Below, piece after piece: positions 43,694 through 47,796 of a stretch of DNA of 64,000 nt. Origin of the DNA: Dryocola clanedunensis subsp. sulfonylureivorans (GTDB lineage: Bacteria; Pseudomonadota; Gammaproteobacteria; Enterobacterales; Enterobacteriaceae); NCBI RefSeq assembly GCF_016756775.1, contig NZ_JAERMU010000001.1:124001-188000 (forward strand), given 5' to 3'. The notes under the pieces were generated by a model. The model did not search any database. It saw only the letters and a list, made by a program, of their open reading frames with translations, and had not been told where the DNA came from. Position numbers and translations under genes: made by a program. How positions within the stretch are numbered: the first letter of the stretch is position 1; each line of letters opens with the position of its first letter.

Positions 43694-43707
43694 TTGATAT
43701 AAAACAA
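43694..43707. promoter_or_regulatory. FNR-like site upstream of hpdBCA
   Basis: TTGATATAAAACAA matches the FNR consensus TTGATNNNNATCAA at 9 of 10 defined positions. An oxygen-sensitive glycyl-radical enzyme would fit anaerobic control, but spacing to a promoter could not be fixed. Confidence 0.35.
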
Positions 43708-43752
43708 AAATATAGACAATTCAATTTTGCTTTTTCAGCAAACGGGAGGAAC

Positions 43753-43905
43753 ATGCTTAGCAGGCTATCTAATTTACCAGCAGATAGACTGAGGGATTAT
43801 TACGAGGGACGAGGGCCGCAGGCCAATCTAGCAAAAAGGCATATTTCATGGACGCCAGTAAACTGCACGTGGTGGAAGACCACGATTTATCTGTACCCCC
43901 ATTAA
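43753..43905 (+). CDS. Possible leader ORF overlapping the hpdB start
   Basis: A 50-codon reading (MLSRLSNLPADRLRDYYEGR...) with a strong GGGAGG 5 nt before its ATG, better than that of hpdB. It overlaps the hpdB start by 58 bases in another frame. No family recognised. It may be a translated leader coupled to hpdB, or the remnant of another gene. It could also be chance with a misplaced Shine-Dalgarno. Confidence 0.35.
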   Translation: MLSRLSNLPADRLRDYYEGRGPQANLAKRHISWTPVNCTWWKTTIYLYPH

Positions 43906-46535
43906 GCAACAACGCTTCAGCAAATAAAGACAATCCTCATCCGCGTGCGAAGGCACTGCGCGATATCTATTTTAAAACCCTGTCATCCGTAGATACGGAA
44001 TTCCCCTACTGGTACACCCGCAGGTGGGATGAACTAGCCGATGACGTCACTATCGTTCGGCGGGCGGAAGCGCTGAAATGCGCCTTCTCACATCTGACCC
44101 CCAATATCTTTCCGGGTGAAAAACTGGTCATGCAGAAGACCGCTTATTATCGCGGCTCTTTCCCAATGCCCTGGCTTTCCGAGAGCTTTTTCCTCGCGAA
44201 CTCGGATTCGTTAACCGCTCGCGTTGATAACGGTTCGGACAGTGCTGGCAAGCTCTCTCAGTTTGGCGGTGGCGGCGGCAATGTCACCAAAAGCGAAGGA
44301 AATATCATTTCTATCGCCGGCAAGTTTGGTATTCGGGCAGAGGAAACGGCATCGCTGATTACCCTTGCGAAGGCATGGGCAGGCCGTTCGATAGAAGCTC
44401 TGGGACACAAGTACGAAATGCATCTCCCGGATTACCAGACCAAAGAAAACATCATGAAGTCCGTCATCTGCATGTTTGATTCGGGGTATACCATTCCGCA
44501 GGGGCACGAAGTCGTTAACTACTATTACCCGTTGCAGTTTGGCCTGGATGGTATCAAAGACATCGCCGGACAGCGCCATGACCAGACCGCCGGTAATGCA
44601 GACGGCGACGGCATTATCGGTATGGATCGGCTCTATTATTACGACGCCGTACGAATACTTATCGAAGGATTGCAGAGCTGGATCCACAACTACGAACACC
44701 ATGCGCGCGAACTGGCGGTGCAGAGTAAATCCGCGCACCAGTCTCAGGAATATCTGGAAATTGCGGACTGCCTGGCATGGGTTGCCCATCACCAGCCCCG
44801 CACGTTCCGTGAAGCCCTGCAGCTTAGCTATATTCTGCATCTGGCAACGTTAAATGAGGATGCGGCATCGGGTATGTCGCCCGGTCGCCTCGGACAAATC
44901 CTCTGGCCGTGGTATGAACAGGATATTGCCGCGGGACGGCTGGACGAAGACGAAGCGCTGGAGCTCTTACAGCTCTACAGGGTTAAGCTTACCTGCGTTG
45001 ACTGCTTCGCCTCAACCGGCGTTGTAGGCGGTGTCCTTTCGGGAAACACCTTTAATAACGTGGTGCTGGGCGGCCTGAAAAAGGATGGGTCCTCCGCTGT
45101 AAACCGCCTTGAGGAGTTAATCATAGAGGCGGGGATACGCTGTCAGACTCCGCAACCAACCCTCAGCGTGCTTTACGATGAAAAACTCCCCGAATCTTTC
45201 CTGCTGCAAGCCATCGAATGCACCAAAACCGGGACCGGCTACCCCGCCTGGATAAACAATCAGGTTGGGATGCAGTTCTTATTAAATCAGTATGCCGCGG
45301 AAGGCATGGATCTTCAGGAAGCCCGCGCTATTGCCATTGGTGGCTGCCTGGAAACTTCCCCCGGATCTTTCCTGCCACTGACGCTAAACGGCAAAGCTTA
45401 TGATATCCCCGGTGGTTCTGGGCAGACCGCAGCGACGGGCGTTCACTTCCTTGCCAACCCGAAAATACTCGAACTTGTACTCACCAACGGCCTGGATAAA
45501 CGTACCGGTATCCAGGTTTATGCCCCGCACAACCAACAGCTGGAAACCTTTGAGCAGCTCTGGCAGCAGTTCACCCGTTATTACGAGTTAACCTGCGATG
45601 TGGTAGCGAAAGCCAATAATATCCAGATGGATATCTGGCGGAAAAATAACATGTCGGTGGTGAACTCCATCCTGAAGCCCGACTGTCTGCAAAGCGGCAG
45701 ACATATTGGTCAGATGGGCTATCGCTACAACGCGACCTACAACATTGAAAGCTGCGGCACCATTACGTTGATTAACTCCCTTGCGGCGATCAAACAAGTC
45801 GTTTACGACGCGCAGAACTATTCGCTGGAAGAACTAACTGACGCACTGATCAACAACTTCGGTTATCAGACCGCGGAGGAAAGCGGCTGTTACTCAATGG
45901 CTGAGCAACGTAAAGCGAATACTTCCGGCTGCTACGAGGACATTTATGCCGCCTGTCTCGGCGCGCCAAAGTATGGCAATAACGATGCTTTCGCCGACGA
46001 CATTCTTAAATTGTACGAAGAGTGGTTCTGCTCTATGGCCCGGACATTCGAATCGCTTTACGGCAAAAAAATGTACGGCTGCCAGATATCCGTTTCCACC
46101 CACGGGCCGCAGGGCGCAAGTACGCTGGCTAGTGCAGATGGCCGACTGGCAGGGACAACCTACTCTGACGGCTCCATGTCCTCGTATCCGGGCACAGACC
46201 GCAACGGCCCTTATGCCCTGTTCCGCTCGGCAACGGTCTGGGATCACAGCCAGTCGCAAAACTCGCAGATGAACCTCAAGCTTCATCCAACGCTGGTTAG
46301 CGGCAACGCGGGCTCCCGCAAGCTGCTTGAGCTGACCCGCAATTATCTGCGTAAGGGGGGATTCCACATTCAGTACAACGTGGTCGATTCCCGGACGTTG
46401 CGTGACGCCCAACAGCATCCTGACAACTATCGCGAGCTGATGGTTCGGGTTGCCGGATTTACCCAGTACTGGTGCGAAATTGGCAAGCCTATTCAGGACG
46501 AAGTTATTGCCAGAACAGAATATGAGGAGCTCTAA
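43848..46535 (+). CDS. hpdB: 4-hydroxyphenylacetate decarboxylase, glycyl-radical large subunit
   Basis: Oxygen-sensitive glycyl-radical enzyme that decarboxylates 4-hydroxyphenylacetate (from tyrosine) to p-cresol. 895 residues, against about 900 in Clostridioides difficile HpdB, with alignable sequence throughout (EFPYWYTRRWDELADD, VRRAEALKCAFSHLTPN, PMPWLSESFF). The catalytic thiyl Cys500 and Glu502 lie in GGCLETSPGS; the radical site is Gly870 in VRVAGFTQYWCEIGKPIQDE near the C-terminus. The presence of a small subunit gene just downstream separates it from PFL, glycerol dehydratase and choline lyase. AAGG precedes the ATG by 9 nt. Inserted between znuB and ruvB, which adjoin in E. coli. 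Confidence 0.93.
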   Translation: MDASKLHVVEDHDLSVPPLSNNASANKDNPHPRAKALRDIYFKTLSSVDTEFPYWYTRRWDELADDVTIVRRAEALKCAFSHLTPNIFPGEKLVMQKTAYYRGSFPMPWLSESFFLANSDSLTARVDNGSDSAGKLSQFGGGGGNVTKSEGNIISIAGKFGIRAEETASLITLAKAWAGRSIEALGHKYEMHLPDYQTKENIMKSVICMFDSGYTIPQGHEVVNYYYPLQFGLDGIKDIAGQRHDQTAGNADGDGIIGMDRLYYYDAVRILIEGLQSWIHNYEHHARELAVQSKSAHQSQEYLEIADCLAWVAHHQPRTFREALQLSYILHLATLNEDAASGMSPGRLGQILWPWYEQDIAAGRLDEDEALELLQLYRVKLTCVDCFASTGVVGGVLSGNTFNNVVLGGLKKDGSSAVNRLEELIIEAGIRCQTPQPTLSVLYDEKLPESFLLQAIECTKTGTGYPAWINNQVGMQFLLNQYAAEGMDLQEARAIAIGGCLETSPGSFLPLTLNGKAYDIPGGSGQTAATGVHFLANPKILELVLTNGLDKRTGIQVYAPHNQQLETFEQLWQQFTRYYELTCDVVAKANNIQMDIWRKNNMSVVNSILKPDCLQSGRHIGQMGYRYNATYNIESCGTITLINSLAAIKQVVYDAQNYSLEELTDALINNFGYQTAEESGCYSMAEQRKANTSGCYEDIYAACLGAPKYGNNDAFADDILKLYEEWFCSMARTFESLYGKKMYGCQISVSTHGPQGASTLASADGRLAGTTYSDGSMSSYPGTDRNGPYALFRSATVWDHSQSQNSQMNLKLHPTLVSGNAGSRKLLELTRNYLRKGGFHIQYNVVDSRTLRDAQQHPDNYRELMVRVAGFTQYWCEIGKPIQDEVIARTEYEEL

Positions 46536-46536
46536 A

Positions 46537-46791: not shown

Positions 46792-46805
46792 GCGTTAGCG
46801 TATCT

Positions 46806-46838
46806 TAAAGCCCGCGCGCCTCATCCTGCGGGCTTTTT
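46806..46838 (+). terminator. Terminator-like hairpin between hpdC and hpdA
   Basis: AAAGCCCGC-12-GCGGGCTTT followed by TTC. It looks like a full intrinsic terminator but lies inside the operon, so it could reduce expression of the activase. Confidence 0.8.
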
Positions 46839-46857
46839 CACGCGCGGAGGAGTCCTT

Positions 46858-47796
46858 ATGGATCATTCATCTGGTCTTATTTTTGATATTCAAAGCCACT
46901 CTATTCACGACGGCCCCGGTAATCGGACAACCATTTTTATGAAGGGTTGCCGCCTGGCCTGCCTCTGGTGCGCCAACCCGGAAAGCTGACAGGCACACGA
47001 GCAGCTGATGTTCAGCGAAACACGCTGTCAAGCAGACCGGGGATGCACGCGCTGTCTGGATCGCTGCCCGCATCAGGCACTCACTATCAGCGATGGAAAA
47101 GTAACGCTGGCGCATGCCCATTGCCGGGTTTGCAAAGAACTCAGCTGTACCGACTCCTGTTATCAGGAAGCGCTGAAACGCTGCGGAAAACGGATGACCG
47201 TCGGCCAGCTGCTTCAGCGCCTCGAAGATGACCGGGACTTCTGGGGAGAAAACGGCGGCGTCACCTTCAGCGGCGGCGATCCTTTCGCACAGCATAACTT
47301 TCTCGAAACGCTGGCTCAGCGCTGCCAGAAACTCGGAATTCATACCGCCATCGAGACAGCGGCGTTTATTCGTACGGACATTTTTTTGCAGGTTATGCAG
47401 TGTATCGATTTCGCCTTTGTGGACGTTAAGCATATGGATAGCCAGCGTCATCATCAGTGTACCGGCGTTGAAAATGAGCTGATCCTGCACAACATCCAGA
47501 CGCTTCTCCGCAGCAGCTGGTCGGGGAGGCTGGTGCTACGTGGCCCCGTCATTGCCGGTTTTAACGACGATGAGGAAAATATGCAAAAACTGGCGGCTTT
47601 TATGAAGCAGGCTGGCGCGCAGGAGATTAATCTGCTGCCCTTCCACCGTCTGGGCGAATCCAAGTGGCAGCAGACGGGGAAAGACTATCCGGTGCGGGAG
47701 TGGCATGCGCCTGATGAACAAAAAATGGCAGGCTTAGCCGCGCTGTTTTCAGGCAGAGGTTTGCGCTGCTACGTTGGCAGCGAAACGCCATTTTGA
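46858..47796 (+). pseudogene. hpdA: 4-hydroxyphenylacetate decarboxylase activating enzyme, interrupted by in-frame TGA
   Basis: Radical-SAM activase that would generate the glycyl radical on HpdB. The reading starts with ATG after GGAGGAG. Codons 1-43 give a normal N-terminus with FDIQSHSIHDGPGNRTTIF and the radical-SAM motif C31RLAC35LWC38ANPES. Codon 44 is TGA, where the C. difficile protein has Trp (NPESW). The same frame stays open for another 268 codons with intact ferredoxin-type cysteines (GCTRCLDRC, CRVCKELSC), FSGGDPF, DFAFVDVKHMD and LLPFHRLGESKWQQTG. So one base change (TGG to TGA) breaks an otherwise complete gene. The part from the internal ATG at 47008 lacks the SAM cysteines and cannot replace it. 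A sequencing error, suppression or readthrough remains possible. Confidence 0.9.

What the first reader, a model, noticed from the sequence alone, without database searches (positions are those of the whole stretch)
43694..47796. hpdBCA operon for p-cresol formation in an enteric chromosome, between znuB and ruvB
HpdB (Cys500/Glu502 and Gly870 radical site), HpdC (two-cluster small subunit) and HpdA (radical-SAM activase) make up 4-hydroxyphenylacetate decarboxylase, best known from Clostridioides difficile. The cassette sits cleanly between two genes adjacent in E. coli, without integrase or IS. It predicts anaerobic conversion of tyrosine-derived 4-hydroxyphenylacetate to p-cresol, a bacteriostatic compound. 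That would be a notable trait for an enteric if the activase works.
Basis: partly seen in the sequence, partly recalled or inferred. Interest (0 to 1): 0.85.

Follow-up and report, generated by a model that had tools for sequence, protein, structure and literature searches.

The report
Disabled p-cresol operon in an enteric
A gut-type bacterium carries the three genes that let Clostridioides difficile make p-cresol, but its enzyme-activating gene is cut by an early stop and its main enzyme has lost an active-site residue, so this copy is probably switched off, while a related strain carries an apparently intact set.

Summary
The operon is real. HpdB (43848-46535) scores 1542.7 bits against the 4-hydroxyphenylacetate decarboxylase (HPAD) large-subunit model (cut-off 1150) and HpdC 83 (cut-off 50); hpdA sequence follows. 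It fills the znuB-ruvB gap.

hpdA has an in-frame TGA at 46987-46989, just after the radical-SAM CX3CX2C motif. HpdB has His at position 220, where 79 of 79 other aligned rows with a residue have Arg (Arg223 in the literature, an active-site residue). The rest of HpdA is as conserved as in two intact relatives, so the stop is probably recent. p-Cresol formation by this genome is unlikely, or very low.

HPAD proper is rare in the family: 3 of 392 genomes, each at a different place. One (G061, apparently Citrobacter amalonaticus S646) looks intact; one (G076) has hpdB split. A 2025 paper knows of no Enterobacteriaceae p-cresol producer (passage), so the intact copy is a testable exception. Five more genomes carry a divergent HPAD-like set with changed active-site residues.

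The parts
43694..43707 (+). FNR-like half-site pair (one mismatch to TTGATNNNNATCAA), candidate anaerobic control
   Evidence: 4 hits in the window, 1.96 expected, 17 of 100 shuffles reach 4: weak alone; same place, also one mismatch, upstream of hpdB in G061 and G076; consensus recalled. The sigma-70 scan found no promoter-like site on the + strand upstream of hpdB
43757..43830 (+). conserved 5' leader with a short stem-loop and two GAGGGA repeats, upstream of hpdB
   Evidence: three genera; one pair of the first stem changed on both sides, but the overall covariation term is +0.22, so no real covariation support; no Rfam match
43848..46535 (+). hpdB, HPAD large subunit (895 aa); catalytic Cys500, Glu502, His533, Glu634, Gly870 kept; His in place of the invariant Arg at 220
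46537..46791 (+). hpdC, HPAD small subunit (84 aa), eight of eight cluster-ligand positions kept
46858..46986 (+). hpdA, first piece (43 codons) with the radical-SAM CX3CX2C motif
46987..46989 (+). in-frame TGA stop inside hpdA; intact relatives G061 and G076 have a sense codon there
46990..47796 (+). hpdA, second piece (268 codons), open to its own stop; first ATG/GTG/TTG in frame is at 47008
42747..43532 (+). znuB, left neighbour
47842..48852 (-). ruvB, right neighbour (convergent)

Best explanation
This is a true hpdBCA (4-hydroxyphenylacetate decarboxylase) operon of a small enterobacterial HPAD branch, sitting in a variable gap between znuB and ruvB, and recently disabled in this genome. 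When intact, HpdA uses S-adenosylmethionine and a [4Fe-4S] cluster to put a glycyl radical on HpdB. HpdB with HpdC then decarboxylates 4-hydroxyphenylacetate to p-cresol, probably under anaerobic (FNR-like) control. Here translation of the activase ends right after its cluster motif, so no radical should be installed, and the lost active-site arginine should hamper HpdB even if it were. Shown: genes, lesions, family, rarity in the genomes searched. Inferred: loss of function, anaerobic control, recency.
For: Family scores and tree. TGA between two pieces that match adjacent parts of the same activase model, positions 3-41 and 45-311. The first in-frame start after the stop lies beyond the cluster motif. 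Arg at HpdB 220 in 79 of 79 other rows with a residue there, including the divergent clade. PMC4979209 lists Arg223 among HPAD active-site residues (passage). Replacing Arg226 of indoleacetate decarboxylase by Glu, Met or Lys abolished product formation (passage, PMC9248008; equivalence to Arg223 inferred by position). In C. difficile disruption of any one of the three genes abolishes p-cresol (passage, PMC6135563). Recency: HpdA deviates at 4 of 89 conserved columns, against 5 of 91 in G061 and 3 of 90 in G076; no significant excess change in the second HpdA piece with any of the 10 outgroups tried. G076 shows separate decay: its hpdB is split.
Against: HpdB and HpdC have no stop or frameshift. 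The rest of HpdA looks preserved, which also fits continued use. One draft genome (88 contigs) was seen, so the stop may be a strain's private mutation or an error. Histidine was not among the substitutions named in the cited passage. Faster change of HpdB in this lineage shows only in part: nominal p below 0.05 with 5 of 10 outgroups against G061, 2 of 10 against the first G076 piece, 0 of 10 against the second.
Confidence: 0.74

Rival explanations
1. The UGA is leaky: native tRNA reads it at low rate, and since an activase is needed only in catalytic amounts, some HpdB is still activated.
For: HpdA beyond the stop shows no decay. The stop is followed by C, a weak termination context in E. 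coli as I recall; the passages concern eukaryotic translation and show only the reference entry of the E. coli paper.
Against: No recoding element found: no Rfam match at E 1; the stretch around and after the stop folds no better than shuffles, z 0.15, 107 of 200 at least as well. The lost arginine of HpdB is independent of the stop. The two enterobacterial relatives G061 and G076 have no stop there.
Confidence: 0.11
2. The stop (and perhaps the HpdB change) is a sequencing or assembly error, and the operon is intact.
For: Draft genome in 88 contigs; single-codon differences; no second isolate of the species was available here.
Against: Two separate changes at conserved places would both have to be errors; completeness 100, contamination 0.08.
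Confidence: 0.1
3. Another activase of the genome serves HpdB in trans.
For: Besides the broken gene, a search with the G061 activase finds activases on contigs C8, C37 and C5. Those on C8 (299 aa; the one TAA counted is its own stop) and C37 (328 aa) were read and are open.
Against: They match the HPAD activase of G061 at only 30-42% identity over the matched parts. hpdA disruption abolishes p-cresol in C. difficile (passage).
Confidence: 0.04

Closest known systems
hpdBCA / 4-hydroxyphenylacetate decarboxylase (EC 4.1.1.83) of Clostridioides difficile and Clostridium scatologenes
   Same: Gene order B-C-A, HpdB and HpdC above curated cut-offs, catalytic Cys, Glu, His, Glu and Gly kept
   Different: Host is an enterobacterium; activase interrupted; active-site Arg replaced; in the tree the nearest rows are Clostridium/Tepidibacter/Thermotaleaceae types (support 86), not C. 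drakei and C. carboxidivorans, the C. scatologenes relatives (C. scatologenes and C. difficile rows themselves were not in the tree)
hpdBCA of G061 (contig length 449067 as in NZ_PQMB01000004.1, Citrobacter amalonaticus S646)
   Same: 84% identical HpdB, same order, similar leader
   Different: All three genes open; different chromosomal place
csdBCA copies in the metagenome of an Enterobacteriaceae-dominated sewage culture (PMC4979209, passages)
   Same: HPAD operons with Glu637 and Arg223 in an Enterobacteriaceae-rich community
   Different: Not assigned to a host in the passages read; 67-73% identical to C. scatologenes CsdB
Indoleacetate decarboxylase and phenylacetate decarboxylase
   Same: Glycyl-radical arylacetate decarboxylases
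   Different: IAD has no small subunit nearby and Leu at the Glu637 place (PMC6181972, passages); the window HpdB has Glu there and scores far below the IAD cut-off

Membership tests
HPAD (hpdBCA) | Large subunit above the curated HPAD cut-off | tested here: met
   1542.7 against 1150 bits
HPAD (hpdBCA) | Catalytic residues Cys503, Glu505, His536, Glu637, Gly873 (C. scatologenes numbering; Gly873 recalled) | tested here: met
   Cys500, Glu502, His533, Glu634, Gly870
HPAD (hpdBCA) | Active-site Arg223 | tested here: not met
   His at 220; Arg in 79 of 79 other rows with a residue
HPAD (hpdBCA) | Small subunit with two cluster-ligand sets | tested here: met
   83 against 50 bits; eight of eight aligned ligand positions; the Pfam model of the C-terminal half is under its cut-off
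HPAD (hpdBCA) | Intact radical-SAM activase | tested here: not met
   In-frame TGA; pieces score 70.8 and 363.1, each under the cut-off of 420
HPAD (hpdBCA) | HpdB inside the HPAD clade | tested here: met
   Among 74 rows split from the divergent 6-row clade with support 100, (no IAD or PAD row in the tree; the tool warned of long branches)
HPAD (hpdBCA) | Forms p-cresol from 4-hydroxyphenylacetate | not testable with these tools
   Needs culture or enzyme assay
Indoleacetate decarboxylase | Score above its curated cut-off | tested here: not met
   685 against 1100 bits
Phenylacetate decarboxylase (PhdB) | Gln at the Glu505 place (as a passage of PMC9248008, implies) | tested here: not met
   Glu502

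The most novel reading that the evidence does not exclude
Enterobacteriaceae hold their own long-resident HPAD branch under FNR-like control, making some facultative enterics p-cresol producers; in the window lineage the operon still works at a low, throttled level through a leaky UGA in the activase.
Probability: 0.1. Interest if true: 0.75.

Novelty: new member of a known kind. Interest (0 to 1): 0.5.

Why it matters
p-Cresol is inhibitory to Gram-negative bacteria (PMC6135563, passages) and the precursor of the uremic solute p-cresyl sulfate (PMC5331431, passage); PMC13285125 describes its makers as certain strict anaerobes (abstract start in the listing). PMC11869571 (2025, passage) states that to its authors' knowledge no Enterobacteriaceae strain produces p-cresol. 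Rare enterobacterial hpdBCA operons, one apparently intact and two damaged in different genes, make that statement directly testable and suggest repeated loss of the trait. Annotation from hpdB and hpdC alone would wrongly credit this genome with p-cresol formation.

Tried and rejected
Selenocysteine or programmed recoding at the UGA: no Rfam match, no unusual fold; rejected as unsupported.

Plasmid or E. coli source: no DNA match in the 5,426-genome E. coli collection in near mode (43500-47900) or distant mode (hpdB only). In the plasmid collection 135 records match HpdB, all under 60% identity, and at most 27.8% among the 20 rows listed.

A conserved small upstream ORF at 43753 overlapping hpdB: not kept in G061 or G076.

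Pairwise dN/dS: most pairs could not be computed because synonymous change was saturated; not used, relative-rate counts used instead.

Target-site duplication or remnants of the insertion: short-word comparison of both operon ends with four genus mates' gaps and the ends of the G065 insert gave only short, chance-like matches outside znuB. Repeats in 43400-47950 gave nothing telling.

Naming the host by near matches in the plasmid collection: only matches under 90% identity; left unnamed.

Aerobic 4-hydroxyphenylacetate route: the HpaB model had no match at E 0.001 in the own genome. An IpdC-like decarboxylase scores 921.2, just under its cut-off of 946, so an own source of 4-hydroxyphenylacetate is possible but not shown.
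Full report
Observation. The window holds hpdB (43848-46535, 895 aa), hpdC (46537-46791, 84 aa) and hpdA sequence (46858-47796), all on the + strand, between znuB and a convergent ruvB. NCBIfam gives HpdB 1542.7 bits for the HPAD large subunit (cut-off 1150; indoleacetate decarboxylase 685, cut-off 1100) and HpdC 83 bits for the small subunit (cut-off 50). The best solved relative of HpdB is 2y8n_A, and the only one of HpdC at E 0.1 is 2y8n_B. In Pfam the C-terminal half of HpdC is under its cut-off, 22.7 against 28.1.

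In the hpdA frame a TGA stands at 46987-46989, directly after the CX3CX2C motif. The 43-codon and 268-codon pieces match positions 3-41 and 45-311 of the same 311-position HPAD activase model (70.8 and 363.1 bits; cut-off 420 for a whole protein). The first in-frame start after the stop, at 47008, gives a protein without the cluster motif. The activases of G061 and G076 are open through this place and score 452.5 and 450.7, above the cut-off.

A second lesion is in HpdB. Of 81 aligned rows, position 220 holds Arg in 79, a gap in one (the second piece of G076 hpdB) and His in the window. The place corresponds to Arg223 of C. scatologenes HPAD, counted on the alignment. PMC4979209 lists it with the active-site residues (passage). 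PMC9248008 reports that Arg226 variants of indoleacetate decarboxylase keep low radical but make no product (passage); that Arg226 is the same place is my inference. The window also has Gln at 454 where 72 of 72 HPAD rows have Lys. In all it deviates at 5 of 241 columns conserved at 98% or more, against 3 of 242 in G061 and 0 to 3 in seven clostridial-type rows, so HpdB as a whole is only slightly unusual. The other catalytic positions are kept. Rows left out of the HpdB set before counting: L007 (same contig as L093) and L067, L071, L072, L073, L080 (split or partial frames); G076 entered as two pieces.

How old is the damage? Against 71 HpdA rows, the window deviates at 4 of 89 columns conserved at 95% or more, G061 at 5 of 91 and G076 at 3 of 90 (7 rows of 78 were not used as reference: the two window pieces, four divergent-clade rows and L069). 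In relative-rate counts with 10 clostridial-type outgroups, no test was below p 0.05 for either HpdA piece or HpdC. HpdB shows an excess in the window lineage over G061 with 5 of 10 outgroups (nominal p below 0.05, not corrected), over the first G076 piece with 2 of 10, and over the second with 0 of 10. HpdB's end branch is 0.22 against 0.084 (G061) and 0.074 (first G076 piece). So the stop looks recent, with at most mild earlier relaxation in HpdB.

Distribution and place. At E 1e-200, 8 of 392 family genomes match HpdB. Three are HPAD proper: the window's, G061 (86% in the search table) and G076 (81-82%, hpdB split in two frames). Five are 45-46% identical. In a class-wide draw only the own genome matched, 1 of 369. 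None of the 5 other genus genomes matched at that threshold. G061's contig length equals that of NZ_PQMB01000004.1, recorded as Citrobacter amalonaticus S646. The operons of G061 and G076 lie elsewhere. The znuB-ruvB gap varies in the genus: about 23 bp in two mates (a terminator-like hairpin), about 187 and 205 bp in two, a 2.2-kb insert with a T6SS Hcp-like gene in the mate with the most similar ZnuB, and 4.3 kb here.

Tree. Window, G061 and G076 (first piece) form a clade (support 100) joined with 19 mostly clostridial rows (support 86), in a 25-row group (support 93) of a 74-row HPAD set split from a 6-row divergent clade (support 100). The tool warned of long branches, and no IAD or PAD row, nor the characterised C. 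difficile and C. scatologenes sequences, was included. The branch is consistent with old gain from anaerobes and long residence; that is inference. RuvB is 89-90% identical between the window genome and G061 and G076.

Regulation. An FNR-like box at 43694-43707, one mismatch from the recalled consensus, is found at the matching place in G061 and G076. Alone it is not significant: 4 hits in the window, 1.96 expected, and 17 of 100 shuffles reach 4. The sigma-70 scan found no + strand promoter-like site upstream of hpdB. A leader of about 60 bp with a small stem is conserved in sequence; the consensus fold has no real covariation support (term +0.22). Rfam gave nothing.

Mechanism. HPAD needs its activase to make the glycyl radical. 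In C. [quoted passage not shown] The window genome has other activases on C8, C37 and C5; the first two were read and are open. Their identity to the HPAD activase is 30-42% over the matched parts. I therefore think this copy makes little or no p-cresol. Leaky reading of the UGA is the main rival; nothing found near the stop supports it.

Literature. Searches (open PMC library only; one search listed 15 of 17 papers) were run, and passages of 12 papers were read, none whole. In those passages I saw no report of hpdBCA in, or p-cresol formation by, a named enterobacterium; papers seen only in a listing may hold one. PMC11869571 states that none is known to its authors (passage). A table of PMC5331431 lists enterobacteria in a column that, from its references on tyrosine phenol-lyase, I take to be phenol (passage). 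PMC4979209 found two csdBCA copies in an Enterobacteriaceae-dominated culture, with no host given in the passages. PMC5682003 predicted the cresol pathway in Clostridium and not in Proteobacteria (passages).

Side finding. The five 45-46% genomes carry a large subunit in which Glu637 is Trp and His536 is Gly, while Cys503, Glu505, Arg223 and Gly873 stay. Four show B-C-A; in the fifth (L099) the contig ends after C. One tested large subunit scores 1060.6 for HPAD (cut-off 1150) and 826.1 for IAD (cut-off 1100). Two tested small subunits score 41.0 and 47.5 (cut-off 50). Three of the five loci were read and lie between glnG-like and hemN-like genes with a TetR-like gene (names recalled from sequence). 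One of these sets has no near match in the E. coli collection. Without Glu637, which is proposed to deprotonate the phenol (passage), the substrate is probably not 4-hydroxyphenylacetate.

Noticed in passing
L095:5820-9720, L096:8431-12324, L097:6338-10230; also L098 and L099: A second HPAD-like set in 5 of 392 family genomes (B-C-A in four, contig end after C in one), with Trp at the Glu637 place and Gly at the His536 place and a weak HpdC-like subunit: a possible arylacetate decarboxylase of unknown substrate, between glnG-like and hemN-like genes in the three loci read.
   Followed up: partly
L094:8023-10705: hpdB of G076 is split into two overlapping frames while its hpdC and hpdA are open: a separate loss in another genus.
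   Followed up: partly
L106:3179-5365: The genus mate with the most similar ZnuB has a different 2.2-kb insert between znuB and ruvB, with an Hcp (T6SS) gene and a 229-aa protein without Pfam match: the gap is a variable spot.
   Followed up: partly
window 43757-43830: Leader with a stem and two GAGGGA repeats upstream of hpdB, conserved in sequence in three genera; could bind an RNA-binding regulator.
   Followed up: partly
L069:9890-12601: A Clostridiales MAG copy groups with the divergent enterobacterial clade and also has Trp at the Glu637 place, with Asn at the His536 place.
   Followed up: no
L061:9863-12883 and 19157-22177: Two hpdB-hpdC pairs with equal scores on one Phascolarctobacterium contig; duplication or assembly effect.
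   Followed up: no
L015: A record named Lutibacter sp. B2 (Bacteroidota) carries HpdB that groups with Marinisporobacter (Bacillota); possibly a mislabelled genome.
   Followed up: no
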